A DNA stretch of 10,757 bases, from contig JAFMAA010000031.1 of assembly GCA_029785235.1 (NCBI GenBank), forward strand, positions 1-10,757. Direction: 5' to 3'. The translations under genes were made by a program, and so were the position numbers. The stretch comes from Nitrososphaerota archaeon. Lineage in GTDB: Archaea; Thermoproteota; Nitrososphaeria; Nitrososphaerales; UBA183. The notes beneath the pieces are model-generated. The model was not told the origin of the DNA, did no database searches, and was given only the letters and a program-made list of their open reading frames with translations. Below, piece by piece: positions 1 to 10,757 of the stretch; the stretch's first letter is position 1, and each line of letters starts with the position of its first letter.

Positions 1-453
1 GCTCCTGAACAGCTCTTCTGAGGAACCGCCGGGAAGGTCGGTCCTGCCACAGTTCCCGATGAACAGCGTGTCTCCGGTGAAGAGGTTCTCCCCGTCATAG
101 AGGCAGATGCTGTCTTCTGTGTGACCAGGGGTATAGACGACTCTCGCTTCTACTTCCCCAAGCGAAAGGGTGTCGCCGTCGCCTACGGAGATGTCATGTT
201 CGATGGGGGACCGCCGGTGGGCTACGATCTTAGCCCCGGTGTAATCGGCCAGCTCTCTCAGAGACGACGTATGATCGGAGTGTCTGTGGGTGGCGACCGC
301 GAACTTGATTTTGACATCGTCTTCCTTCGCGGCGTTGACTATGGGGTCGATCTCCCAACCAGAATCAACCACGAGCCCCTCTCCCCCAGCCCTGTCGGCG
401 AGGAGGTACACGAAGTTCTGCATGGTCCCCACAGCTATCTGTCTGACGAGCAT
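1..453 (-). CDS. ETHE1/glyoxalase II-like metallo-beta-lactamase-fold hydrolase (3' part outside window)
   Basis: The minus strand is open from an ATG at 453 to the window edge (151 codons), so the C-terminal part is missing. It shows the metal-binding signature HRHSDH at residues 56-61, PGHTEDS at 109-115 and FTGDTLF at 125-131. A following GNCGRTDL (133-140) strongly recalls the GRTDF stretch of ETHE1-type persulfide dioxygenases and related glyoxalase II enzymes. Such enzymes are cytosolic and use one or two metal ions to oxidise glutathione persulfide or hydrolyse thioesters; the substrate here cannot be decided. A stop codon lies eight codons before the ATG and a GTG directly precedes it, so the start is well bounded. 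It looks like ordinary metabolism and marks the edge of the accessory region. The fold call is firm; the exact reaction is inferred. Confidence 0.88.
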   Translation of the reverse strand, partial: MLVRQIAVGTMQNFVYLLADRAGGEGLVVDSGWEIDPIVNAAKEDDVKIKFAVATHRHSDHTSSLRELADYTGAKIVAHRRSPIEHDISVGDGDTLSLGEVEARVVYTPGHTEDSICLYDGENLFTGDTLFIGNCGRTDLPGGSSEELFRS

Positions 454-664
454 CACGGAACCTGCTTCGTGCCACTAATCATGTGTTGCGCAGAGTCATG
501 AGGCGTCTGAAAACATGCCGCGGGTCGGATTAAAGCTGTAATCTGCCGGTAGATTGAGAACGAACTCGAATGCGAAGTCCGAGTCCGCCGAAGCGATTCC
601 TATGCAAGAAACCCACTAGACGTGTCCTCCGGCAACCCATATGTCGATTTCGCGAGCGTGGGTG

Positions 665-670
665 TTTTAT
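665..670 (+). promoter_or_regulatory. Possible TATA box for the HPPY methyltransferase gene
   Basis: TTTTAT at this position would place a transcript start near 693, giving an approximately 30-base leader before ATG 724. It supports the later start codon over GTG 622. The match is short and the case is weak. The remaining sequence between 454 and 723 shows nothing else convincing. Confidence 0.25.
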
Positions 671-723
671 GCCGTCGGGGAATAGAATGTCGGTGTTTCA
701 GGACGGTTCTTGCGCCGAAAAGG

Positions 724-1617
724 ATGGAACTGGTAAGCCCCCCGGATTATCGCGACTACCTGGCCCATCACTACAAGGTCCCAATCGGGGGCTCAGAGAT
801 AACGCTGAGGAAGAACTGGAACATCAGCCAGTACGGGCCAAATCACTATCAGCCCGAGGAATGGACAGTCTGGAGCTTCCCGGACAGAGGCAACTGGGCG
901 ACTCACGGTGGCGACTACCCTGGGAACTGGAGCCCGTTCATCCCCCGAAACCTGCTGGACAGGTACACAAAGGTGGGCGAGACCGTGTGCGATCCTACGG
1001 TGGGAAGCGGCACGACCCTCGTCGAGTCGAAGCTGATGGGCAGGAACGCGATTGGTGTAGATCTCAACCCTGACGCATGCATGATTGCGATGAACCGGCT
1101 CGACTTCGATTTCTCGAACCCACGGCAAATCGAGACTCCCAGAATCGACGTCTACTGCGGCGACGCTAGGAACCTCGACGCCATAAGAGGCGAGAGCTTA
1201 GAGTTAGTGGTCTTACACCCGCCGTACGCAGGGCTGATTCGTTACTCGGAAGGGAACCCGGGCGACCTTTCGCACCTCGGCATAAAGGAGTTCGTCCATG
1301 AAATCGGCTTCGTGGCGAAAGAATGTCTGAGGATATTGAAGCAGAATCGACATTGCGCAGTCCTAGTAGGAGACACTCGTTTACGCGGCCACTACGTTCC
1401 TCTGAGCATCGGGGTCCTTTCTGCCTTCCTCGCAGCAGGGTTCGTGCTTAAAGAGGACATCATCAAGATTCAACATCAGACGAGGTCCGCTAGGGAGCGC
1501 TGGACCGACAGGTCGTACGGCTTCTACAAGATAGCCCACGAGCACCTGTATGTGCTGCGGAGGCCAGTCTCGGGAGAGCGCATGGTCGATTTCGAGAACA
1601 GCCTACTATGGTGGTAG
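724..1617 (+). CDS. Solitary DNA methyltransferase, amino-methylating (N4-cytosine/N6-adenine) class, HPPY motif
   Basis: A 297-residue SAM-dependent DNA methyltransferase. Motif I is DPTVGSGTT at residues 90-98, motif II is GVDLNP at 111-116, and the catalytic motif IV is HPPY at 165-168, in place of the usual (D/N/S)PPY. Motif I precedes motif IV, with a motif X-like segment (FIPRNLLDRY) just before motif I. Further conserved-looking blocks are VGDTR (215-219), the GFVLKEDIIKIQH stretch (239-251) and AHEHLYV (271-277). These fit a family I recall from archaea and some bacteria in which HPPY is followed by YS and GDLS blocks, as here. The frame stays open upstream to a GTG at 622, but the first 34 codons look unlike a methyltransferase N-terminus, so ATG 724 is preferred. 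No endonuclease lies beside it. Whether it methylates N4-cytosine or N6-adenine cannot be told. Confidence 0.87.
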   Translation: MELVSPPDYRDYLAHHYKVPIGGSEITLRKNWNISQYGPNHYQPEEWTVWSFPDRGNWATHGGDYPGNWSPFIPRNLLDRYTKVGETVCDPTVGSGTTLVESKLMGRNAIGVDLNPDACMIAMNRLDFDFSNPRQIETPRIDVYCGDARNLDAIRGESLELVVLHPPYAGLIRYSEGNPGDLSHLGIKEFVHEIGFVAKECLRILKQNRHCAVLVGDTRLRGHYVPLSIGVLSAFLAAGFVLKEDIIKIQHQTRSARERWTDRSYGFYKIAHEHLYVLRRPVSGERMVDFENSLLWW

Positions 1618-1744
1618 GGGGCGACGCAGCAAGATAACAGTTGCGGTGAGTTGTTCTCACTGACGTCTTCGTCGCCAGACTGATGAGGTGCTCGTTTCCC
1701 CTAGCGCCATGGAAGGCGGGGCCAAGGGCGGGGTGACGTCAAGC
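1618..1744. other. Gene-free stretch
   Basis: No credible coding frame, RNA or repeat was seen between the methyltransferase stop and the TATA box at 1745. Together with the candidate RNA and the bases 1991-2213 it makes up roughly 600 bases without a supported protein gene. Confidence 0.5.
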
Positions 1745-1750
1745 TTTATA
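1745..1750 (+). promoter_or_regulatory. TATA box upstream of candidate structured RNA
   Basis: TTTATA is centred near 1747, in the middle of a stretch without a credible protein gene. The usual archaeal distance of about 26 bases puts transcription start at about 1774. The 5' strand of a long base-paired stem begins exactly there (1775), so box and RNA support each other. Confidence 0.5.
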
Positions 1751-1774
1751 GCTCGAAGCGCCAAATAAACACTT

Positions 1775-1990
1775 GGAGAGGCGGGGAAGAAAGCAGCACG
1801 TTTTTGGCGTGCCCTATGAACCCGAGTCTGGGGCCCGGAGGGCGACGGCGTCCACGACGTGCTTGGCTGGCTACTCCCCTCGCCTTCTCTCCTTAGTCTT
1901 TGTAGGGGTGGATTCTGGGGCAGAGCCCAGGCTAAGTCTTCCTGAGACTTCTGGCTGTGGTCATGGCCTTTTCGAACCGTGACCGCGATG
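1775..1990 (+). ncRNA. Candidate structured non-coding RNA (family unknown)
   Basis: This 530-base region between the methyltransferase and the CARF gene has no convincing protein gene but is rich in stems. Positions 1775-1786 pair with 1876-1892 in an enclosing helix of about 14 base pairs with a TT bulge and a single T bulge. Inside it, GCACG (1796-1800) pairs with CGTGC (1808-1812). Downstream, CTGGG (1915-1919) pairs with CCCAG (1926-1930) and AAGTCT (1934-1939) with AGACTT (1945-1950). GGTCATGG (1959-1966) pairs with CCGTGACC (1977-1984), extendable to about 11 pairs by wobbles. The enclosing helix begins where the TATA box at 1745 predicts the transcript start. I compared it by eye with SRP RNA and RNase P RNA and could not make either fit. 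The 3' end is set at the last stem and is uncertain; a T-rich stretch (2011-2021) could end the transcript. Confidence 0.45.
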
Positions 1991-2175
1991 AGTTCTGTTC
2001 TTAGGATTAACCGTGGTTTTGTTACTGACAGGCGCATTTGATTCCGTGGCCTAGGCCGGCCACTCGAAGAACGTCTTATCGGGTCACCCCCACACCAGTT
2101 GCTTCCATACTGTTCACAACGCCAAGTCGGGAGGTTGCAGGTTTGCGTTGAAAAGGATGGCGATTCTTACAAAAG

Positions 2176-2184
2176 TTTATGTAA
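2176..2184 (+). promoter_or_regulatory. TATA-like box for the CARF gene, inside its longest open frame
   Basis: TTTATGTAA preceded by AAAAG resembles an archaeal BRE/TATA pair. It predicts transcription start near 2205, about 9 bases before a TTG at 2214. It lies downstream of the two ATG codons (2148, 2157) that a length-based caller would choose, and so argues for the TTG start. Confidence 0.35.
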
Positions 2185-2213
2185 TTTCCTTCTATCCAAA
2201 TGAACCAAAACTC

Positions 2214-3002
2214 TTGGCGTTCGTAGCCCGCGTCCAGATCATTCCAATTGGGCCGCGAGCTTGTCGAGTTGCAAGTTTAGCTGGTGCTTTGAAAGTGGAT
2301 AGATTGTGCTTGGTGCTCGACAGAGAAGACAAGAAGGCGAAGCAGAGTGCCGAAACCCTGAGAAGTCTGTTGGGAGGCAGAGTGAAGGTCAGAGAAGAGC
2401 ACGCGGATGTCTGGGACCTTCATCAATGCTTGGAGAAGTTTCGCCGGATAATTGAAAGAGAGAGGGGGAATCAGATTGCTCTTAACGTCTCGATGGGCAC
2501 CGAAGTAACTACCACCGCGGGGATGCTCGCTTGCATGTTATGGGGACCTGAAGTCCAGATGTTCTGCGACCGCGCCTATGTCAGGCACGACCCGAACAAG
2601 CCAAGCGCTAGGTTCGTACCAATCGAAACGCTATCAATCCCTTCCCCTAAGAAGGAGGCGCTCGCGGTGCTCAGGATTCTGGCGAGTCAGCCCGGGCAAA
2701 AAATAAGGAGAGGGCGACTTATCGAGATTCTTTACGACAGAGGAGTGATAGCAAAAAAACAATCCAAGAATGACAAGCAAGGAAACCCGAAGGAATTTAC
2801 GAGTCAAGCGAAACAGAGCCAATTGAACTCCATTCTTGGTTCGATACGCATTAATCCAAGGTGCATTGAAATCCAGGACGTTGGGAAAAGGTGTGAAATT
2901 GTCCTGACTAAGTTGGGTTTGAACGTTTTGAGAATTTTCCAGGGGCAGTTCTCAGACTATCTCGATCCGTTTGGCCGGCAATTTCTTCCGGCAGTTCCGT
3001 AA
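2214..3002 (+). CDS. CARF-like sensor domain plus winged-helix protein (HFX_2341/DUF6293-like)
   Basis: The protein is 262 residues from TTG 2214. Residues 5-15 (the ARVQIIPIG strand) and 90-110 (NVSMGTEVTTTAGMLA) match the Rossmann-like pattern of archaeal CARF proteins of the HFX_2341/DUF6293 kind. In these a strand-plus-NxSxG loop is followed by a helix rich in Ala, Gly and Met. CARF domains bind cyclic oligonucleotides or related nucleotides. Residues 144-245 look like a winged helix-turn-helix, ending in an LTKLGLNVL wing-and-helix pattern, so the likely role is ligand-controlled transcription. TTG 2214 was chosen because the longer forms from ATG 2148 or 2157 add about 20 residues before the first CARF strand and cover a TATA-like box. 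The gene is more AT-rich than its neighbours, consistent with transfer. No CRISPR-Cas gene is nearby. The CARF call rests on motifs recalled by eye. Confidence 0.7.
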   Translation: MAFVARVQIIPIGPRACRVASLAGALKVDRLCLVLDREDKKAKQSAETLRSLLGGRVKVREEHADVWDLHQCLEKFRRIIERERGNQIALNVSMGTEVTTTAGMLACMLWGPEVQMFCDRAYVRHDPNKPSARFVPIETLSIPSPKKEALAVLRILASQPGQKIRRGRLIEILYDRGVIAKKQSKNDKQGNPKEFTSQAKQSQLNSILGSIRINPRCIEIQDVGKRCEIVLTKLGLNVLRIFQGQFSDYLDPFGRQFLPAVP

Positions 3003-3151
3003 ACGGACGAGCTCGCTCGTGCTTGGTTGCACAACATCGTGGATTCTGAAGCATTCGAGAAACTGGAGCAGATTGACGAGCCACTGGTTCGCAACAATCC
3101 GAGGAAGTTCGAGAAGTATTGGAATGGCTTTGGCCCCGAAAGCAGGGACTC
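3003..3151 (+). other. Open in-frame tail after the CARF gene stop
   Basis: The reading frame of the CARF gene stays open past its TAA (3000-3002) until 3218. The part up to the hairpin at 3152 reads as a soluble, charged peptide (for example AFEKLEQIDEPLVRNNPRKF) with codon use like a gene. Possible starts are TTG 3027 and GTG 3036. It could be a small separate gene, a remnant of a longer C-terminus cut off by a nonsense change, or chance. No function is recognised. Confidence 0.3.
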
Positions 3152-3176
3152 GCCTCAGTCTGAGGCTACTTTTCTT
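3152..3176. terminator. Hairpin terminator between convergent genes
   Basis: A perfect 6-bp stem, GCCTCA (3152-3157) and TGAGGC (3161-3166) around a GTC loop, is followed on the plus strand by a T-rich run (3167-3176). It sits exactly where the plus-strand CARF unit meets the stop codon of the last minus-strand operon gene (3166-3168). It would best serve the plus-strand transcript. Confidence 0.45.
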
Positions 3177-3786
3177 CTCCGGGGCCCTTGGGCTTTACTT
3201 CCACAAGAAGGAGGTTGACTTGGTGCCGCTTGCCGCTAATCTCCAGTTTGCCCTGCGCATGCCAACCTGTCCGGCCTGATTCAAAGGGGTGGTCCTTTCC
3301 TCTCCTCGTGAAGTAAAATACGCCGATGGTTTTTCCGTCGTCGTCGATGATTTGGGCCTGCATCGTTGCGGGACGAAGGTTTGCATTATTTACCTGTTCC
3401 CGTGGCGGAGGGGGTAGCCGGCTTCCAGTAAGGCCTGCGGCACTGGGCGCCTCCATGCGTTCCGAACTAAGCCCATACGCCTTAGCGGACTCGGTCGCTC
3501 CATCACTTCCCTTGCTTCTCGGCCGACTGTGTCCCGCTATCCAGGGAGGAGCGGACCCCTCTTCCGGCAGCTGCGCTTCGTACTCGAGGTTTCGTGGGAC
3601 CAGCCCAAGTTTCTTGCTCTCCTCGATGAAGGACCTCACAGTCCTGGGCCCAGCCAAACCGTCGTATACGGGACCCGGGTTCCATTCAGGTCCCATGCCT
3701 GCCCTCCTCAGCACGAGTATCGCGATGCACTTGGGGCAATACTCGGAAGCGCTCGGTGATGAGCTGTAGTGGCCCGTCTGGTCCAT
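3166..3786 (-). CDS. Unrecognised zinc-binding protein, main part (frame broken at its N-terminus)
   Basis: This 206-codon frame opens at ATG 3786, directly after an in-frame TAA. It has a CPKC pair at residues 17-20, a Gly/Pro/Ser-rich middle (70-135) likely to be disordered, and a charged beta-rich C-terminal block (142-200; for example DDDGKTIGVFYFTRRGKDH) that looks conserved. I do not recognise the family. The ATG is probably not the true start. The frame one base off, just upstream, encodes the missing half of a zinc ribbon (CPPGTH and CSKC) and begins 8 bases after the preceding operon gene. Reading through with a -1 shift near 3787 gives one protein of about 249 residues. A single lost A in an AAAA run would produce this, as would a real mutation or programmed shift. 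It is the last gene of the Dam/DndD-like operon, so a DNA-contacting accessory role is plausible but inferred. Confidence 0.6.
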   Translation of the reverse strand: MDQTGHYSSSPSASEYCPKCIAILVLRRAGMGPEWNPGPVYDGLAGPRTVRSFIEESKKLGLVPRNLEYEAQLPEEGSAPPWIAGHSRPRSKGSDGATESAKAYGLSSERMEAPSAAGLTGSRLPPPPREQVNNANLRPATMQAQIIDDDGKTIGVFYFTRRGKDHPFESGRTGWHAQGKLEISGKRHQVNLLLVEVKPKGPGEEK

Positions 3787-3914
3787 TTACCGGTGGTGGA
3801 GTTGCACTTGGAGCACTGCATGTAGTAGCCCATGTCGATTGAGAAATCATGCGTCCCTGGGGGGCATGCCCTCTTGCGGCGCCCGGATTGTACGGCCCGC
3901 GAACCACGGCTCAA
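3787..3914 (-). pseudogene. N-terminal zinc-ribbon piece of the same gene, in another frame
   Basis: A TTG at 3914 lies 8 bases after the stop of the upstream operon gene. From there this frame encodes a basic start and then a zinc-ribbon half: CPPGTHDF followed by YYMQCSKCN. The frame itself runs on to 3708, but sense-looking sequence moves to the -1 frame at about 3786, where H and CPKC complete the ribbon. The two parts together give C/H, CxxC, H and CxxC ligands. Either the gene is disrupted, or one base is missing from the assembly in the GGTAAATGG region. Confidence 0.5.
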
Positions 3915-3922
3915 CTATGGTC

Positions 3923-4348
3923 TCAAATCCCGGCTGACTTCTGGCGCGAGACCTTTATCCAAGCTTCGAAGTCAATCCTCCCGCTCTTCTTGAATTCGTT
4001 GTAGATGGTCCGAAGGCCGCCTTCTGCGAATTGCATCATCAGGTGGCCAATTTCCGCTTCGCCTGCCTCGGGGTACATCGATTTGATGACAAGCGGGAAT
4101 ATCCCATAGGGATCCCGATTGACATACGTGTCCAGGATGCTAATCATTTGGTCGAACTTCGCCTCCGCGAGGTCTCGGGTGATTACCCCTATCGCAAGCG
4201 AGAAGACGAAGACGTCAATCTGCTGACCGAAGGGCTTGAAATCACCCTTGCCTTCCTTAAGCTCCTCAAGCATCTTCTTCCCCTCCGCAGTGGTGAAAAT
4301 CCTCTGACTCGGGCTGACATACCGAAAGCCGATTCCTCTGGAACTCAA
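3923..4348 (-). CDS. Dnd-system-associated protein 4-like protein
   Basis: A 141-residue protein starting with TTG 4348, which overlaps the stop of the ATPase gene in a 4-base TTGA. That overlap implies coupled translation. Features are a short N-terminal segment (FTTAEGKKMLEELKE), then FKPFGQQIDVFVFSLAIGV (38-56), a helical middle, and the FAEGGLRTIYNEF segment near 107-119. This layout resembles the small Dnd-system-associated protein 4 family, where a dVFxxAxxLG block is followed much later by an EEYAnGG-like block. The role of that family is not well established; it accompanies DNA phosphorothioation and related modification clusters. Position directly behind a DndD-type ATPase supports the match. 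The similarity is from memory and is moderate only; a DndE-like protein is an alternative but fits less well. Confidence 0.6.
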   Translation of the reverse strand: MSSRGIGFRYVSPSQRIFTTAEGKKMLEELKEGKGDFKPFGQQIDVFVFSLAIGVITRDLAEAKFDQMISILDTYVNRDPYGIFPLVIKSMYPEAGEAEIGHLMMQFAEGGLRTIYNEFKKSGRIDFEAWIKVSRQKSAGI

Positions 4349-6345
4349 CCGTTGAACTCCTCGAAGTTGCTCCTGCCTGTGCTCTTGTCCCGGCTGATGA
4401 GGTATTCCTCGGTCGAGAGGGAGTCAAGCTTACGCCTGACCGTCTCAGATTGGATTTCCGAGTCTAGGAGGAGGATGAGAACCTGCTCCGCGAAGTCGGA
4501 AAGGTTGTTCACGACTTCGAGCTGGCGCGCCTTGTCGAGCCTGCCCAGCACGAAGTCCATTATGACCGGCGCTTTGTAGCTCGCGGCCTTGTTCAGTCCG
4601 TAAATCAGCGAAAGTGCGACCAGCTCTTTGTACCCTTCTGACGGAAGGATTTTGCGCCCTTTCTTGTCGAGCATCCACGTCGAGTAATCCGGGTCTATGT
4701 CAATCCCCCGCCATCCGCCCTCCTTCGCTATCATCTCGAAGTACTTCGAGGCGTTTTCGACGATGAGCTCCTTCTTGCGCTCCGTAAGCTCCCTGATGAC
4801 ATCGTCGAAGGCCTTTGCCATGCGCGCGGCGGTCTCTTGCCTCGCAGATGTCACGGCCAGGCTTCCCTTCTGGAGTCCCTGCTTCCTGAGGATGCCCTCT
4901 AGTCGCCCCTTTCTCGAGAGGCTGTCCTTGTAGCTCTCCTGAAGGTGCCTTATCTCTTCATCAAGGGTACCCTTCTTGAAGTTCAGGGCGTCGATTTCCT
5001 CCTGCACTTTCGCTGCCTCTTGTACCTCGCTCTTCTTGATTTTTCCCTCGATTGCGAGCCTCTCATCGTCAAGCTCTACGGACCTCACCCGCAGGTCGTT
5101 GATGATTTTGTCCACCTCCTTGTAGTCGACCTTTATTGCTTCGATTCGTCCCAGCGCATACTGAATCTCATCAATGGGCGGGGTAGTCTTCTTGGCCGCC
5201 TTTTCCTGGAGCTCCTCGAGGTTGCGCTCGAGCGCCTTTCTGGAGATTGCTAGGTGCCTCATGTGCCCTTCGTCAAGCCGGGTCCCGCAGATGCATGTCG
5301 ACACCTTCCCGGACACCATGTCGTCGAGAATTCCCATCCTGGCTCTCACGTTTACAATCTGGGAACTCAGGTCGTCCGCCCCCGTTATCTCCTTGAATCG
5401 CTCAAGGGTTTCCCTTACTTGCGGGGCTATCAGGTAGTAAGGTATGTCGTCCACGAGCCTCTGCCGCATCTCCTGACGCTCCTCGATGCTGTGGTCTACG
5501 GCCTCCTTCTCCGCCCGAATCCCCCTAAGCTTAGCGTCCTCGTCTGCTATCTCCTTTAGCTCGCCTCTACGCACCTGGGCCTGGAGGAGGTCCTCGTTGA
5601 CCTTCGTTAGCTCTATCTTCTTCGCCTCCAATGTCTTGGCATATCCCTCCGACTCCGCTATGACCGCTGACAGTGCCTCGGAGTTCTGGCGGTATGTCTC
5701 GGATAGGGTGGCGTCATCCTTCATTTGGTCGAGGTACTTGCGCTGCACGCGTAGGAGGTCCTCCCTGGCCTCACGGATTTCAGGGATTCCGAGGACGAGC
5801 TCGATGGCATCCTTCGTTTCCTGGGGCTTCGATCCGCTATAGCGCCGGATGTCCTCGCCGTCGAAGAAGAAGAACTGAGATGCGTCGAACGGTAGCATGT
5901 CCTCAACCACGCCATCGGGATACTTCTCTTCCGACCCTTTGCCATGCTCCGTTAGCCTGAAGTCCTCCGCGCCGAGGTCTCGGTTCGTTCGTGGCCTCGA
6001 CGATTTCGTGGTGACGGTCCTGTGGAGGGTATACCGCTTCCTGTTGTGCTCGAAGGTGAGCGAAACCCGCATGGATGGCCTCGGGCTGTTCTCAACCGCG
6101 TCGAGGTTCATCAGGTCGAAGTCAGTCCTAGGTGCTTGGCGATCGTTTGGCCTCCCTGCAGCGTAAGCCTCGATGGCCTTCTCCCCGTACAGAGCCCAGA
6201 TGACCGCGAGGAATACGGAAGTCTTACCTGACCCGCCCTCGCCCACGAAGGTTACGACTGGCTTCCCGGAGTTCTCAGGGAACTTGACGGTCGCCGACGG
6301 CTCGTAGCATCTGAAGTGTTCCATCGTAAGCTCGATTAGGCGCAA
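4345..6345 (-). CDS. DndD-type ABC/SMC-like ATPase with central coiled coil
   Basis: A 666-residue protein. The Walker A is GEGGSGKT at residues 35-42. FFFFDGED at 158-165 is a hallmark of DndD-type ATPases. Heptad-rich coiled coil runs over about 190-300 and 365-525. Between the arms, CICG at 351-354 sits where Rad50-like proteins carry a hook, though it is CxC rather than CxxC. The ABC signature region is LPSEGYKELVALSLIYGL (567-584) and the Walker B is VIMDFVLGRLD (594-604), where DndD relatives have a D-x-P-LGRLD pattern; here Val replaces the Pro. The TTG start at 6345 is needed to include the first strand (RLIELTMEHFRCY) and lies 2 bases after the stop of the small upstream gene. DndD-family ATPases act on DNA in phosphorothioation and allied defence systems. 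The family call is strong; the exact system is not. Confidence 0.87.
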   Translation of the reverse strand: MRLIELTMEHFRCYEPSATVKFPENSGKPVVTFVGEGGSGKTSVFLAVIWALYGEKAIEAYAAGRPNDRQAPRTDFDLMNLDAVENSPRPSMRVSLTFEHNRKRYTLHRTVTTKSSRPRTNRDLGAEDFRLTEHGKGSEEKYPDGVVEDMLPFDASQFFFFDGEDIRRYSGSKPQETKDAIELVLGIPEIREAREDLLRVQRKYLDQMKDDATLSETYRQNSEALSAVIAESEGYAKTLEAKKIELTKVNEDLLQAQVRRGELKEIADEDAKLRGIRAEKEAVDHSIEERQEMRQRLVDDIPYYLIAPQVRETLERFKEITGADDLSSQIVNVRARMGILDDMVSGKVSTCICGTRLDEGHMRHLAISRKALERNLEELQEKAAKKTTPPIDEIQYALGRIEAIKVDYKEVDKIINDLRVRSVELDDERLAIEGKIKKSEVQEAAKVQEEIDALNFKKGTLDEEIRHLQESYKDSLSRKGRLEGILRKQGLQKGSLAVTSARQETAARMAKAFDDVIRELTERKKELIVENASKYFEMIAKEGGWRGIDIDPDYSTWMLDKKGRKILPSEGYKELVALSLIYGLNKAASYKAPVIMDFVLGRLDKARQLEVVNNLSDFAEQVLILLLDSEIQSETVRRKLDSLSTEEYLISRDKSTGRSNFEEFNG

Positions 6346-6347
6346 CG

Positions 6348-6544
6348 CTAGGTAACGCCTTCCTCCAGCAGTTCCTTTATCTGATCCACGAGATGCTTCT
6401 TATCGCCCGAGCGCCTGTACCTCTGCAGCCTCTCCTCCAGAATCACGCCTTCCATAAGCTCCTTCGGAACATCGTGCTCCTTGGCGGCTTTCTCTATTAG
6501 CTCCTCCAGGAGGGGGTCCAGCTTCAGGCCGAGCGCATCTCCAT
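6348..6544 (-). CDS. Small helical protein between helicase and ATPase; start disrupted by an apparent -1 frame break
   Basis: The frame ending at TAG 6348-6350 encodes about 62 residues, with a helical core (PLLEELIEKAAKEHDVP, then ELMEGVILEERLQRYRR) and an acidic helical end. It resembles the short proteins that sit beside DndD-like ATPases in DNA modification clusters. There is no ATG, GTG or TTG in this frame before residue 30. The expected start, ATG 6544, lies 2 bases after the helicase stop but closes at a TGA after six codons. Switching back one base after ATG GAG gives a clean protein starting M-E-D-A-L-G. One missing base in the assembly, a real mutation, or frameshifting would explain this. 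Spacing to the ATPase TTG is 2 bases, so it belongs to the operon. Confidence 0.55.
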
Positions 6545-6546
6545 TC

Positions 6547-8679
6547 CTATGACGTGACCTTCCTTGACATCGCCGCTTCCAGTTTCGTTATATAAATCAG
6601 GACATCCCCCGAATTGGTTGCTGTTTTCGCGAAGAGCTTTGCCCTCTCCAGCTCGCTTTCTAGAATCTCGAACTCAGCCTGCGTAATGCCTGTGCCCACG
6701 GCGTCGGGATCGATGGGGAGGACGAGGATGTCATTAATTGACGCGGACTCCTTGCCCTCGGCGCGACGGAGGAGCCTTCCGCGCCTCTGTATGAACTCTC
6801 TCGTTGACTTGGAGCTGGACACGAGGATGGCGCTGTCGCACGTGGGGATGTCGACCCCCTCGTCGAGACAGTGAATTGATAGGAGATACCCCTCGTGGTT
6901 CCCCTCAAGGTAGTTGAGGCTGCGCTGCCTTTCCTCGTCCTTCATGGTCGAATCGTATCTCATTCCAAAGGTTCCCAAATCGGAGAGCGCGAGGAGCGTC
7001 TCGTCCACATGGGCTATGTCATTGCAGTAAATCAGGCATCGGCCCAGCCCGCCCCCTTGGACTATCTCCTTCAGCGCCCTGACCTTGTTCCTCGCCCTTT
7101 TCAGGACGTTGACTCTCCTGATTAGAAGTGCCTGGACGGAGCTCGATTCTCCTTCATCAATAGAGCCCAGGCGGGCGAGCATTCTCGGGAACGGCATGCC
7201 CTTGAGTTCAGGGTGAGACTTCAGGAGCCTAGATATTTTCGATGTGATGGCCGCACTGAGGTCGGCGTAGTCCCTTCTTTCGTCCTGCTCGAGAATCGCC
7301 GGCACGACGCGGTAACGGTATTCGGAGAGGACCTTGTCCCTGAGCGCCTCCTCCAGGGAGTACTCGTAGACCACCGAGCCAAAGAACGTCATAATCCTGT
7401 CCTCGCCTTCCTCGTCCCAGAACCTTTCAGGAGTCGCGCTTAGGCCGAGCCTATATCCAAAATCATGGGACATTACATTGGAGAAATATGGTGCCCCGGC
7501 TCGGTGCACCTCGTCGGCAATCAAGCAGAGCCTGTCCGGCTGCAGCGACCCAATGAGAGAGCCGAAGTCAGGCGAGGCTGCTGTGTTGTAAGTCGCCAAG
7601 ACGAAGACCCTCTTCGAGCTTTCGTCGCCAGTTTTCACGTAGTCGACGAGCGCATGCAGGGCGTCCCGCCAGCCACCTCGGTTGGAGTCGCACTCAGACG
7701 CGACGGCCCCAGGGAAGGCCCTCTGCACCTCCTTCTTCCATTGGCCCGCCAAGAGGATGGTCGGGACTGTCACCACGACGAGTGCATTGACAGGGACGTG
7801 CTTCCTCACGGCGTTGAGAGCGACGATTGTCTTACCGGTCCCGGTGGCCATCGCGAGAATCCCTTTGAATCCGGCCTCGCTCCACCTCTTGACTGCCTCC
7901 ACTTGGTAGTCTCGCAGCTGTACCTGCCTAGGAGGAGACGTGTTCCTCTGGGGGATGACCCTGATGTCCTCGAGTCGCTCTGGCGCCAGTGAAATCAGCT
8001 TCTCCTCTATCGCCTTCGGGACTTCGATGACCCTCGTCCTCTCTGATTCGCCATTCCAGTACTTGTTCATCTTTTCCACGTCGCTCTGGAAGTAAGGGAG
8101 TTGGCTGGCCTCCCACCCTTTGTACACCTTGAACTCCTCGATGTTGTGGAGCCAGGCGTATGCAGTCTCGTTTATCGACCCGCTGAAAGATATCGAGTCG
8201 CCTTCCTCGTCGGTGAGTATTCCCACCTTCTGGTGGAATATCCCGCTATTCTCCACCTGATCGGCATCCATGGGTTGTCCGGAGTCATCGAGTGGAATCG
8301 CAATCTTGATTCTCAGTTTCCTCTTGGCTACCATCCACGCGAGCGCCTTGACGTTGTCCCGCAGAAAACCCTCGTCGAGGCCCTCAATCTCCCGCACCCC
8401 AGACTTGGCTATGATTCCCTCCGGGTCCTCGAGGCCGTCCCTGATGGCTTCGACGTCGCTCCTGCTGAGGCGGGCGCTGACGAGAAGGTCCATTTCTCCT
8501 CCTTTGACGATGAAGTTCATGATTCCTCGTGCGGCTACGGCGAAGGTCGTAGACGAGAAGAATCCTGCCAGTCGGCGATACCGCGCCGACTCGGTAAGTG
8601 CTGGGACGTAGAACTCGTTCAGTATGTCATCGGAGTCGGAGTCCCAGGCGGATTTCAGGCCGAGAGCTCTGAGGCCCAA
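6547..8679 (-). CDS. Phospholipase D-type nuclease fused to SF2 helicase (DEVH box)
   Basis: A 710-residue two-domain protein. The N-terminal third carries a phospholipase D-type half-site, HQK at 149-151 and GSINET at 167-172, suggesting a nuclease that works as a dimer, as single-HKD enzymes do. The helicase follows: a Q-motif-like RDYQVEAVKRW near 256, Walker A ATGTGKT (278-284), Walker B DEVH (389-392), SAT (414-416), then motif V DEGVDIP (606-612) and motif VI QRRGRLLRR (631-639). The arrangement is close to type III restriction and XPB/UvrB-like SF2 helicases fused to PLD domains, which are common in prokaryotic defence loci. The TTG start at 8679 follows a GTGGAG sequence and lies 25 bases after the dam stop. 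It probably tracks on DNA and cuts unmodified or invading DNA; that function is inferred from domains and neighbours. Confidence 0.9.
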   Translation of the reverse strand: MGLRALGLKSAWDSDSDDILNEFYVPALTESARYRRLAGFFSSTTFAVAARGIMNFIVKGGEMDLLVSARLSRSDVEAIRDGLEDPEGIIAKSGVREIEGLDEGFLRDNVKALAWMVAKRKLRIKIAIPLDDSGQPMDADQVENSGIFHQKVGILTDEEGDSISFSGSINETAYAWLHNIEEFKVYKGWEASQLPYFQSDVEKMNKYWNGESERTRVIEVPKAIEEKLISLAPERLEDIRVIPQRNTSPPRQVQLRDYQVEAVKRWSEAGFKGILAMATGTGKTIVALNAVRKHVPVNALVVVTVPTILLAGQWKKEVQRAFPGAVASECDSNRGGWRDALHALVDYVKTGDESSKRVFVLATYNTAASPDFGSLIGSLQPDRLCLIADEVHRAGAPYFSNVMSHDFGYRLGLSATPERFWDEEGEDRIMTFFGSVVYEYSLEEALRDKVLSEYRYRVVPAILEQDERRDYADLSAAITSKISRLLKSHPELKGMPFPRMLARLGSIDEGESSSVQALLIRRVNVLKRARNKVRALKEIVQGGGLGRCLIYCNDIAHVDETLLALSDLGTFGMRYDSTMKDEERQRSLNYLEGNHEGYLLSIHCLDEGVDIPTCDSAILVSSSKSTREFIQRRGRLLRRAEGKESASINDILVLPIDPDAVGTGITQAEFEILESELERAKLFAKTATNSGDVLIYITKLEAAMSRKVTS
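6588..6596 (-). promoter_or_regulatory. Possible internal TATA box in the operon
   Basis: On the minus strand TTTATATAA lies inside the last codons of the helicase gene. It predicts a transcript start near 6566, about 22 bases before ATG 6544. It could give extra transcription of the small protein and ATPase genes. Because it also encodes Ile-Tyr-Ile-Thr of the helicase, it may be fortuitous. Confidence 0.25.
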
Positions 8680-8704
8680 GCTCCACGGTTTTGCGGTCTG
8701 GCGA

Positions 8705-9574
8705 TTATAGGGTTTCTCCGGTTTGCGGGTCGTAGTTGAGAACGAGGAGCTCCTCCACCCTGCCCCTGCCCTTCACCTTGCCGCTCAAGACGGATTGGCT
8801 CCCGAGCTTGACCTGCTTAAAGCCGCGGTAGAGCTTCGTTATCCAATCGTCGCTGCCATCGCTGAGCAGCACGAGGGCGCCCTTCTCGTGCAGGCTACGG
8901 AACTGCTCGGAGAGCCGCTCCTGGTCGCCCATCGCGAACCCGTTCTGGTGGTACCCAGTGAACTGCCCGAAGTACGGCGGATCAAGGTACACGAAGTCCC
9001 CCCTCTCGACCCTCTCGAGGGCGCTGGTGTAATCCAGGTGTTTGATTGTGGAGCCCTTGAGGGCAGCGCTGTCGGCGACGAGCGTCGGCTTGTCGAGAAT
9101 CCTTGGACTCTTATAGACCCCCATCGGCACGTTGAACCTTCCGGCGGAGTTGACGCGGTATACGCCGTTGTAACATGTCTTATTCAGGTAGATAACCCTC
9201 GCAGCTCTCTCGACAGGATTCAGGCTTCGTGAATCCGTCTCTCTGGTGGCGTAATAGAAGGCCTTCCCCTGGGACTCGTGACGCCTCTGATAGGAGCTGA
9301 GCAGCTCGATTAGCTCCGGAAGGTCGTCGCGAACCGCACGGTAGGCCATCGTCAGGTCCTGCAGCCGGTCGGAGAGGAACGCGGTGGGGGGCTTCAGGTG
9401 GAAGAACATCGCTCCCCCACCAAGAAAGGGCTCGTGATATCGTAGGCGCTTGCCCGACGGTGGAAGGTACGGGTGAATCTTTGCGAGGAGGTGACGCTTG
9501 CCTCCTGCCCATTTCAAGAAGGGTCTTGCTTGCGTGAGATCCAGCGGGGCGAGCTCCTGCGCTTGCATCTTCAT
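8705..9574 (-). CDS. dam: Dam-like (D12-class) DNA N6-adenine methyltransferase
   Basis: A 289-residue protein of normal length for the family. Motif X is PFLKWAGGKR (18-27), the SAM-binding motif I is EPFLGGG (48-54) and the catalytic motif IV is DPPY (198-201). The segment KTCYNGVYRVNSAGRFNVP (132-150) is typical of the D12 target-recognition region. By family these enzymes transfer methyl from SAM to the N6 of adenine, often in GATC; specificity here is inferred. It is the first gene of the minus-strand operon. A TATA-like box ends about 18 bases upstream, so the transcript is probably leaderless or nearly so; ATG 9574 and ATG 9568 are both possible starts. In this context it probably marks self DNA against the helicase-nuclease and ATPase encoded behind it. 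Confidence 0.94.
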   Translation of the reverse strand: MKMQAQELAPLDLTQARPFLKWAGGKRHLLAKIHPYLPPSGKRLRYHEPFLGGGAMFFHLKPPTAFLSDRLQDLTMAYRAVRDDLPELIELLSSYQRRHESQGKAFYYATRETDSRSLNPVERAARVIYLNKTCYNGVYRVNSAGRFNVPMGVYKSPRILDKPTLVADSAALKGSTIKHLDYTSALERVERGDFVYLDPPYFGQFTGYHQNGFAMGDQERLSEQFRSLHEKGALVLLSDGSDDWITKLYRGFKQVKLGSQSVLSGKVKGRGRVEELLVLNYDPQTGETL

Positions 9575-9590
9575 CGGTATTGTGGCTCAC

Positions 9591-9604
9591 CATATTTATC
9601 TTAA
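9591..9604. promoter_or_regulatory. Shared AT-rich element driving divergent dam and vsr transcripts
   Basis: Only 52 bases separate the starts of the two divergent genes. They contain one AT-rich element that reads as a TATA-like box on both strands: ATAAATAT on the minus strand (9592-9599) and TTTATCTTAA on the plus strand (9595-9604). At the usual spacing of about 26 bases the predicted starts fall at or beside ATG 9574 and just before ATG 9627. Occupancy in one direction could exclude the other. Confidence 0.45.
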
Positions 9605-9626
9605 GCAGGTCTTGCGAGCCGCTACG

Positions 9627-10130
9627 ATGGCAAGACCTAGACAGGTCAGAATACCTCCACCGACTTCCACCGCTGTACACAATGTGATGGCGGCCAACAG
9701 AGGGACTAACACTGGTCCCGAGGGCGTGCTCCGCAGGTCCCTGAAGAGTATCCTGGTAGGAGGATACCGTCTGAACCATGGGATAGCCGGCGTAAGGGTA
9801 GATTTGGCCTTCCCGTCGAAGCGGGTTGCCGTGCTGGTAAACGGGTGCTTCTGGCACCACTGCCCCGCATGCAATCTTCCTCTGCCGAAGAGCCACACAG
9901 CATACTGGAAGGCGAAGTTCGAAAGGAACGCCGAGCGGGACAAGCTTAACAGGGCAGAGCTCGAGGCGGCGGGCTGGTCGGTTATTGTCATCTGGGAGCA
10001 CGAGCTCGAAGCAGCCCCCGCCGATTGTGCTCGACGAGTCAAGGCCGCTCTCGGCGTACTTCGACGCCCTGGTGTTGTCAGAGGCAGGGTACAAGGTCGA
10101 GTTCTCGAACCGGGGGAAGAAGCCGCATGA
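9627..10130 (+). CDS. vsr: Vsr-like mismatch endonuclease
   Basis: A 167-residue protein with the order of blocks of very-short-patch-repair endonucleases. These are an N-terminal NTGPEGVLRRSL block (28-39), the VDLAFPSKRVAVLVNGCFWH core (58-77; the Asp at 59 matches the catalytic Asp of Vsr) and HCPAC (78-82) in the zinc region. RDKLNRAELEAAGW and IWEHEL (122-127) follow. In E. coli Vsr the last motif is WECxL with a zinc-binding Cys; here His takes that place. Vsr nicks 5' of T in T:G mismatches that arise from 5-methylcytosine deamination, yet no cytosine-5 methyltransferase is in the window. An alternative is a Vsr-fold restriction nuclease. ATG 9627 follows the shared promoter closely; the frame is open further upstream but overlaps dam. 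The last approximately 35 codons overlap another coding frame. Confidence 0.85.
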   Translation: MARPRQVRIPPPTSTAVHNVMAANRGTNTGPEGVLRRSLKSILVGGYRLNHGIAGVRVDLAFPSKRVAVLVNGCFWHHCPACNLPLPKSHTAYWKAKFERNAERDKLNRAELEAAGWSVIVIWEHELEAAPADCARRVKAALGVLRRPGVVRGRVQGRVLEPGEEAA

Positions 10131-10757
10131 CAACCCCGCCCCTGCCAATCCCGATAAGGAGGACATGCCCTGCATACTGTCCCCGCTGAACGGATGTCCC
10201 AACAGGACCTCGAGGACGGACGGGTTATGCCGTAATCATGCCCCGAAGGAAGAGGAGTCGAGACCTAAAGTCGTCAGGAGGCATTGGGCAGACTGGATTG
10301 GTAGGATAATACCGCCGGGCATGAGCAGGGAGCAGTGCCTGACCTGGGCCCCTGCCCACGTAACGACCATCGAGAAGCTCATCGAATGGATGGAAGCTGA
10401 CAGGAAGGCCCGGGAGGCAGCGCTCGAAGGGTTCGTCACGGACCTCATGGGGTCTCTCAAAGGGAAGGTCCCGGACTCGACGACGATGCAGAGGGACCTC
10501 GAAGACCCGAAATCCCACGGCGCCATGGCGTCAGACATCGTAAAGCGGACGAAGAAGATGGTTAACGCCCATTTCCCCGTGGCGAGATACAAGGGAGAGG
10601 TCGCGGAGAAGCCATGGAAGTACAACAAGGTCAAGATGGAGAAGATTCCTGTGCGCGCCCTCGGAGCCTTACTCGTGCTTGGGGTGGCCTCGGAGGAAGC
10701 GAACAGAGGAGACTTGTGGGCGTACACCAAGATGGGCAGACCTTCCGCGTCCAGCCG
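10027..10757 (+). CDS. Unrecognised protein with Cys/His cluster, 3' end outside window
   Basis: This frame is open from well inside vsr to the window edge, about 243 codons from GTG 10027. Strong codon bias (G or C in the third position) and sensible peptide sequence begin at about that point, for example LSAYFDALVLSEAGYKVEF. A Cys/His group follows (residues 49-71: CILSPLNGC, then LCRNH) and may bind zinc. The rest is soluble, charged and mostly helical, with HWADWIGRIIPPGMS and WMEADRKAREAALEGF as distinctive stretches. Alternative starts are GTG 10072 and ATG 10165; the last has AAGGAGG only 2 bases before it. No family is recognised. Overlap with vsr implies co-transcription and perhaps a joint role in the defence island. 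Confidence 0.6.
   Translation, partial: MLDESRPLSAYFDALVLSEAGYKVEFSNRGKKPHDNPAPANPDKEDMPCILSPLNGCPNRTSRTDGLCRNHAPKEEESRPKVVRRHWADWIGRIIPPGMSREQCLTWAPAHVTTIEKLIEWMEADRKAREAALEGFVTDLMGSLKGKVPDSTTMQRDLEDPKSHGAMASDIVKRTKKMVNAHFPVARYKGEVAEKPWKYNKVKMEKIPVRALGALLVLGVASEEANRGDLWAYTKMGRPSASS

What the first reader, a model, noticed from the sequence alone, without database searches (positions are those of the whole stretch)
3166..9574. Dnd-type ATPase module joined to a Dam methylase and PLD-helicase, without sulfur genes in view
Six adjacent minus-strand genes encode Dam-like methyltransferase, PLD nuclease-SF2 helicase, a small helical protein, a DndD-type ATPase, a Dnd-associated-protein-4-like protein and a zinc-ribbon protein. 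Gene spacing is 25, 2 and 2 bases, a 4-base overlap, then 8 bases. Seen directly: gene order, motifs and tight spacing. Known: DndD-family ATPases and their small partners normally accompany DndC sulfur-transfer enzymes or other modification genes. Inference: a defence system in which N6-adenine methylation rather than phosphorothioation marks self and the PLD-helicase destroys foreign DNA. I know of no described system with exactly this set, but I cannot search.
Basis: partly seen in the sequence, partly recalled or inferred. Interest (0 to 1): 0.82.

Follow-up and report, generated by a model that had tools for sequence, protein, structure and literature searches.

The report
Archaeal PbeABCD defence operon with Dam
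An archaeal gene cluster that looks like a known virus-defence cassette (PbeABCD), but with a DNA adenine methylase beside it and no sulfur-marking genes in view, suggesting that the same cassette can work with different self-marks.

Summary
Minus-strand genes form dam-pbeA-pbeB-pbeC-pbeD with the stated tight spacing; the sixth (zinc-ribbon) gene is split between two frames, and pbeB's frame has no usual start codon. The four Dnd-like genes are not an undescribed set: they are PbeABCD (Xiong 2019), the same as the CxC-ATPase/DndE system (Rakesh 2024), by profiles, the CxC motif and a DndE-like model of PbeD. Both papers already propose that methylation may replace phosphorothioation (PT). My survey supports this: of 92 PbeA loci, 49 have a PT sulfur gene within 10 kb; the other 43 (window included) carry a D12/Dam methylase in 9 (versus 1 of 49) and some base-modification candidate in 27 (versus 1 of 49). 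Dam lies within 100 bp of the cassette, same strand, in five scattered loci including the window. Against: PT genes beyond the window are not excluded; the phylogeny-corrected test is too weak; the closest relatives' context is unknown; Xiong's larger count shows methylases about as often beside PT genes; a divergent Vsr gene offers Dam another partner. Verdict: a new variant (adenine-methyl mark) of a known kind. Side finding: a radical-SAM family beside pbeABCD in 13 of 102 loci.

The parts
8705..9574 (-). Dam-type (D12) N6-adenine DNA methyltransferase, first gene of the operon; DPPY and FLKWAGGK motifs; nearest solved structure DpnM; GATC specificity predicted
   Evidence: PF02086 2.9e-48, TIGR00571 1.7e-68; 2dpm 1.5e-55; motif alignment
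6547..8679 (-). pbeA: PLD (HKD) nuclease domain fused to SF2 helicase
   Evidence: PADLOC PbeA 4.5e-195; TIGR04095 1.3e-97, under its cut-off; H149xK and GSxN plus helicase motifs
6348..6548 (-). pbeB-like small-protein frame, open for 66 codons, without ATG/GTG/TTG near its 5' end
   Evidence: PADLOC PbeB 2.3e-4, PF20306 0.0012; 78 of 80 scanned loci have a small ORF here, the window and L075 do not
4345..6345 (-). pbeC: CxC-type ABC ATPase (P-loop GEGGSGKT at 35, CIC at 351)
   Evidence: PADLOC PbeC 2.3e-64, best DndD 3.5e-49; CxC test; Rad50 profile only 6.8e-8
3923..4348 (-). pbeD: DndE-like partner of PbeC
3166..3786 (-). ORF of 206 aa, C-terminal part of the 'zinc-ribbon' gene; probably an accessory, not part of the conserved cassette
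   Evidence: only 2 proteins at E <= 0.01 among 309 candidates, one nearly identical to the window's
3708..3914 (-). N-terminal zinc-ribbon frame, in another frame than 3166-3786
9575..9626 (.). 52-bp gap between divergent dam and vsr (if vsr starts at the ATG at 9627); probable shared promoter region, inference from the sequence only
9627..10130 (+). Vsr-type endonuclease, divergent from dam (listed ORF begins at 9498); rival partner of Dam
   Evidence: PF03852 9.9e-12; TIGR00632 2e-26, just under its cut-off

Best explanation
This is a PbeABCD (CxC-ATPase/DndE) antiviral cassette whose modification partner is a Dam-type adenine methylase instead of DndCDEA. Inferred working: Dam methylates the host's GATC sites (specificity predicted). 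PbeC-PbeD, an ABC ATPase with its DndE-like DNA-binding partner, scans DNA for the same motif and tells methylated from unmethylated sites. On unmarked invading DNA it engages PbeA, whose helicase translocates and whose PLD domain nicks or blocks the DNA so that the virus does not replicate; PbeB holds the complex in check. Shown here: gene identities, operon layout, DndE-like model of PbeD, recurrence of tight Dam-Pbe pairs, and near-exclusion with sulfur genes in my sample. Not shown: methylation, motif, activity, and whether the mark blocks or licenses Pbe.
For: Pbe profiles, the CxC motif (57 of 91 ATPases next to PbeA versus 1 of 25 other DndD-like ATPases) and the PbeD model. In 92 loci, Dam within 10 kb: 9 of 43 without a sulfur gene (window included) versus 1 of 49 with one (p 0.005); any D12, N4/N6 or C5 methylase 16 of 43 versus 1 of 49 (p 1.4e-5). 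Tight same-strand Dam in the window, L045 (5 bp), L031 (2 bp), L036 (3 bp) and L027 (98 bp); these five need 5 changes on the PbeA tree, at least 4 forced by starred branches. None of 8 Dam-linked genomes has DndC over the cut-off; 6 of 6 PT controls do. Ten loci with Dam (9 without the window) versus about 0.7 expected from D12 density in 24 genomes. GATC-contact residues largely conserved (roles recalled). Xiong's Pbe system acts at GATC.
Against: The window's own genome is not held, so sulfur genes elsewhere are not excluded. Independent-pairs test: median p 0.25. No contig length listed for the 14 nearest PbeA proteins (P0002-P0015) equals one listed for the 11 nearest Dam proteins (P0123-P0133), so there is no sign that close kin share this Dam. 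In Xiong's larger set methylases are about as common near PbeAC with DndCD (105 of 233) as without (155 of 320). At least L043 and L184 of the 43 loci counted as unsulfured carry other PT-module genes, and L094's Dam is annotated beside a type II restriction enzyme 8.8 kb away. Vsr lies beside Dam in the window. PbeB's frame lacks a start. GATC depletion in the window is not specific to Dam-linked loci (p 0.39).
Confidence: 0.62

Rival explanations
1. Dam belongs with the divergent Vsr endonuclease, as an orphan methylase or a type II-like pair, and merely sits beside a solitary or decaying Pbe cassette in a defence island.
For: Vsr is divergent from dam across a 52-bp gap; PbeB frame without a start and a split zinc-ribbon gene suggest decay or sequence error; Dam near Pbe is loose in 4 of the 9 unsulfured loci (L004, L019, L040, L094), and in L094 it lies in a type II system.
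Against: Dam is co-directional with pbeA at 25 bp; similar tight pairing recurs in L045, L031, L036 and L027, where my Vsr profile finds no Vsr. Vsr itself is not enriched (2 of 43 versus 1 of 49).
Confidence: 0.22
2. An ordinary DndCDEA-PbeABCD system: the sulfur genes lie just outside the window and Dam is incidental.
For: The window shows only about 2.1 kb upstream of pbeA and 6.5 kb downstream; in 20 of 49 PT loci DndC/PAPS lies beyond such a view.
Against: 44 of 49 PT loci would show some PT-module gene in such a view; the three methylase classes are rare in PT loci of my sample (1 of 49).
Confidence: 0.1
3. Non-functional remnant: pbeB and the zinc-ribbon gene are broken, so no working system is present.
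For. Xiong found each pbe gene needed, pbeB strictly.
Against: dam, pbeA, pbeC and pbeD are open with conserved motifs; a near-identical 206-aa protein with the same first Met is in the protein database (P0242), so that frame is not unique to this sequence; PbeB may use a rare start codon, or the break may be a sequencing error.
Confidence: 0.06

Closest known systems
DndCDEA-PbeABCD of Haloterrigena jeotgali A29 (Xiong 2019, PMC6459918)
   Same: Order pbeA-B-C-D, domain content, archaeal setting, predicted common GATC motif
   Different: Dam methylase instead of DndCDEA in view; PbeB frame without a start; extra split zinc-ribbon ORF
CxC ABC-ATPase/DndE systems with methylases (Rakesh 2024, PMC10853773)
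   Same: CxC ATPase, DndE-like partner, HKD-SF2 protein, small protein, methylase in the neighbourhood
   Different: The passages seen name cytosine-5 and permuted N4-cytosine methylases; here a D12 adenine methylase is the operon partner
Dam/DpnM family (GATC adenine methylases)
   Same: Family, DPPY, most target-contact residues
   Different: Sits in a Pbe operon with Vsr divergent; no type II restriction enzyme recognised in the window
DndFGH
   Same: Restriction partner of a GATC-type PT mark in some hosts
   Different: No DndF, G or H among the hits listed for the window's proteins; methylation at GATC is reported not to interfere with DndFGH (PMC10470545, passages)

Membership tests
PbeABCD / CxC-DndE system | PbeA: HKD nuclease fused to SF2 helicase | tested here: met
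   (4.5e-195); motifs
PbeABCD / CxC-DndE system | PbeC: DndD-like ABC ATPase with CxC at the coiled-coil apex | tested here: met
   CIC at 351; 57 of 91 ATPases next to PbeA versus 1 of 25 others carry CxC in the middle part (apex position not modelled)
PbeABCD / CxC-DndE system | PbeD: DndE cognate | tested here: met
PbeABCD / CxC-DndE system | PbeB: small protein between PbeA and PbeC | tested here: inconclusive
   Open frame with weak PbeB/Sp-DndD matches but no usual start
PT-dependent Pbe system (DndCDEA-PbeABCD) | dndC/D/E/A next to pbeABCD | tested here: inconclusive
   No dndC, dndE or dndA among the hits for ten of the window's ORFs; genome not held
Dam (GATC) methylases | D12 family, DPPY catalytic motif | tested here: met
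Dam (GATC) methylases | Methylates GATC | not testable with these tools
   Contact residues largely conserved by alignment; no methylation data
Housekeeping Rad50/SMC | Best profile match Rad50/SMC | tested here: not met
   Rad50 6.8e-8 versus DndD 2.3e-44 and PbeC 2.3e-64

The most novel reading that the evidence does not exclude
PbeABCD is a mark-agnostic effector cassette: its scanning pair PbeC-PbeD reads one short motif, and the mark-writing enzyme has been swapped repeatedly in evolution between backbone sulfur, 6-methyladenine (this window), N4/C5-methylcytosine and an unknown mark made by a dedicated MiaB-like radical-SAM enzyme, which would be a new kind of self-mark in prokaryotic immunity.
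Probability: 0.35. Interest if true: 0.78.

Novelty: new variant of a known kind. Interest (0 to 1): 0.46.

Why it matters
Xiong 2019 left open whether solitary PbeABCD cassettes are dead or paired with other marks. Tight Dam-PbeABCD operons, recurring in unrelated lineages whose genomes show no dndC, make that question directly testable with an enzyme of easily checked specificity (GATC, DpnI/MboI digestion). If Pbe senses 6mA as well as sulfur at the same motif, its sensor reads marked versus unmarked DNA rather than sulfur itself. The radical-SAM branch would point to an undescribed DNA modification.

Tried and rejected
Housekeeping Rad50/SMC for the ATPase: rejected. GATC avoidance as support: the window has 15 GATC against 52.6 expected, the lowest ratio of 16 palindromes, but Dam-linked loci are not lower than the rest (p 0.39), so not used. 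Matching contig lengths between PbeA and Dam hits to infer synteny in close kin: no match found (only the longest contig of each cluster is shown). Close kin in genomes: PbeA matches in 7 of 398 (E <= 1e-40), 5 of 256 (1e-60) and 7 of 400 (1e-40) archaeal genomes, overlapping draws; full-length ones at most 41% identical. One 226-aa fragment in G125 is 47% identical over residues 2-202 (L194), with no cassette or labelled modification gene beside it. Dam in IMG/VR: 15 loci, at most 43% identity. Zinc-ribbon protein as a core part: rejected, two database hits only. PHROGs and tRNAs (none) told nothing on a mobile element. Rows dropped: 78 of 80 viral loci; 15 short genome-search loci (13 replaced by the longer regions, L081 a repeat of L002, L082 a helicase-only match); 10 of 102 loci with under 8 kb of flank before the tests (L026 with a divergent Dam among them); Dam pieces under 200 aa (three in L017). 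My methylase profiles cover D12, N4/N6 beta-class and C5 only, grown from few seeds; type I, III and IIG enzymes were not counted. Of 20 plasmid hits listed I fetched 6.

Full report
OBSERVATION. The six-gene description was checked by ORF listing and profiles. Dam (8705-9574), the PLD-SF2 protein (6547-8679), the DndD-type ATPase (4345-6345) and the small dnd_assoc_4-like protein (3923-4348) are open minus-strand genes with the stated spacing. The small helical protein's frame is open over 6348-6548 but has no usual start codon before an ATG at 6455; the ATG two bases after the helicase stop is in another frame. The zinc-ribbon gene lies in two frames. Also in the window: a divergent Vsr-type endonuclease and, on the plus strand, an N4/N6-type methylase (622-1617) and an HFX_2341/CARF regulator (2148-3002).

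LITERATURE. Xiong et al. 2019 (PMC6459918; passages, section 8 in full) named pbeABCD and showed about 10^4-fold protection with DndCDEA at GATC. All four genes matter (pbeA partially), PT-marked virus escapes, and Pbe without PT neither harms nor protects. They report 320 of 553 PbeAC without dndCD, 155 of these with base-modifying genes within 10 kb, and suggest methylation pairing. Their figure legend also gives 105 PbeAC with both DndCD and a methylase, that is 105 of 233, so methylases are not clearly rarer beside PT genes in their count. Rakesh et al. 2024 (PMC10853773; abstract and outline, passages, section 16) equate PbeABCD with the CxC-DndE system and report C5 and permuted N4 cytosine methylases. 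The passages I saw name no adenine methylase partner, and radical SAM occurs there twice, about DndC; I could not read supplements. Full-text searches for PbeABCD (10 papers), PbeC with methyltransferase (33 papers, 20 listed), Dnd terms with radical SAM (18 papers, 10 listed), PbeA with radical SAM (1 paper) and newer PbeABCD papers (4) showed no report of Dam-PbeABCD or radical-SAM-PbeABCD in the listed titles and abstract beginnings; the library lacks most subscription papers. The 2020 ABC-ATPase paper by the same group, recalled, is not held. PMC10470545 (passages) reports that G6mATC does not impair DndFGH.

SURVEY. Neighbours were labelled with profiles built here. Of 92 loci with at least 8 kb of flank, 49 have a DndC- or Ssp-type sulfur gene within 10 kb and 43 do not; at least L043 and L184 of the 43 carry other PT-module genes, which works against the contrast. 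Counts without versus with sulfur gene: Dam 9 of 43 versus 1 of 49 (p 0.005); N4/N6 methylase 8 versus 0 (p 0.0016); C5 4 versus 0 (p 0.044); radical-SAM 11 versus 0 (p 1.1e-4); Vsr 2 versus 1 (p 0.60). The window is one of the 9 and was chosen for its Dam; L094's Dam is annotated beside a type II restriction enzyme. Any of the three methylase classes: 16 of 43 versus 1 of 49 (p 1.4e-5); any base-modification candidate: 27 of 43 versus 1 of 49 (p 4e-11); without the PT loci numbered L043-L077, methylases 0 of 22 versus 16 of 43 (p 5e-4). By my count, eight loci have a methylase within 100 bp of the cassette on the same strand (window, L045, L031, L036, L027 with Dam; L032, L090, L185 with N4/N6) and none of the 49 PT loci do.

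CONTROLS. D12 genes number 22 distinct strong ORFs in about 62 Mb of 24 genomes (my count; 8 of the 24 were chosen for a Dam), so about 0.7 would fall near 92 loci by chance; 10 were seen, the window included. In whole-genome searches none of 8 Dam-linked genomes has DndC over the cut-off (one weak match below it), nor the one N4-linked genome; 1 of 9 radical-SAM-linked genomes has one, and 6 of 6 PT controls do. Their completeness is not given; several are metagenome assemblies. On a PbeA tree of 103 rows the PT label needs 17 changes (shuffled mean 32.2, 0 of 500 as low), radical-SAM 4 (12.4, 0 of 500), methylase 13 (15.9, 11 of 500). The five tight Dam loci need 5 changes, at least 4 forced by starred branches, so such pairing seems to have arisen several times. 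But independent pairs give a median p of 0.25 with few informative pairs, so the exclusion of PT and base methylation is not shown free of phylogeny. The quick tree used LG+G4, and L045 sits on a long branch.

WHAT REMAINS OPEN. Sulfur genes outside the window: 29 of 49 PT loci would show DndC/PAPS, and 44 of 49 some PT-module gene, in a view of the window's size, so absence counts about tenfold against them.

MECHANISM. Inference: Dam writes G6mATC on host DNA; PbeC-PbeD scans and reads the motif; PbeA translocates and cuts or blocks unmarked DNA; PbeB restrains. Whether methylation blocks Pbe (as in restriction-modification) or licenses it (Xiong's Pbe was inert without PT) is the key unknown. 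Established for the PT version: protection and mark-dependence. Shown here: gene identity, model of PbeD, co-occurrence. Not shown: any biochemical step.

SIDE FINDING. Thirteen of 102 loci encode a radical-SAM protein, CxxxCxxC in all 13, often upstream of pbeA with a small partner or just after pbeD. Pfam sees it weakly or not at all (PF04055 at 0.00047 in one of four tested). All 11 genomes searched from such loci have it, 10 of them once and one (G916) with a second, weaker match; 0 of 14 other Pbe genomes do. The profile was built from these loci, so its presence there is by construction but its absence elsewhere is not. A model (pLDDT 87.8) resembles MiaB, RimO and B12 radical-SAM enzymes (Foldseek 2.7e-8 to MiaB, but TM only 0.45). 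This may be a further mark-writer for PbeABCD.

Noticed in passing
L003, L011, L012, L014, L024, L025, L037, L096 and, more divergent, L001, L002, L021, L029, L182: A radical-SAM family (CxxxCxxC in 13 of 13, MiaB-like model) sits beside pbeABCD where no sulfur gene is near (11 of 43 versus 0 of 49 loci); possible new DNA mark-writer.
   Followed up: partly
L009, L013, L017, L019, L021, L022, L029, L030, L061, L090, L097: Proteins of about 440-1300 aa matching one profile lie beside pbeABCD, many directly upstream of pbeA; of four tested with Pfam three carry sigma-70 region 4-like domains and L029's had no hit.
   Followed up: partly
window 6348-6548 (-): pbeB frame open but without a usual start codon; 78 of 80 scanned loci have a normal small ORF there, the window and L075 do not.
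   Followed up: partly
window 3166-3914 (-): Zinc-ribbon gene split between two frames; a near-identical 206-aa database protein starts at the same Met.
   Followed up: partly
window 9627-10130 (+): Vsr-type endonuclease divergent from dam; Vsr is known (recalled) with cytosine-5 methylases, so its place beside an adenine methylase is odd.
   Followed up: partly
window 622-1617 (+) and 2148-3002 (+): A second DNA methylase of N4/N6 type (HPPY in place of the usual motif IV) and an HFX_2341-like CARF-wHTH regulator.
   Followed up: no
window 1-10757: GATC is strongly depleted (15 seen, 52.6 expected, lowest ratio of 16 palindromic tetramers), but many Pbe loci show this regardless of Dam.
   Followed up: partly
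L187, L191, L192: pbeA and pbeC-D lie on opposite strands, beside DndC/D/E genes: a rearranged cassette in genomes of the archaeal draws.
   Followed up: no
L094: Two tandem copies of pbeABCD with the same protein accessions on a Lactiplantibacillus plasmid.
   Followed up: no
L036: Methanobrevibacter contig with a second pbeC-pbeD pair before a pbeABCD-dam operon.
   Followed up: no
L017: Three short Dam-like pieces upstream of the cassette, possibly a broken dam; not counted.
   Followed up: no
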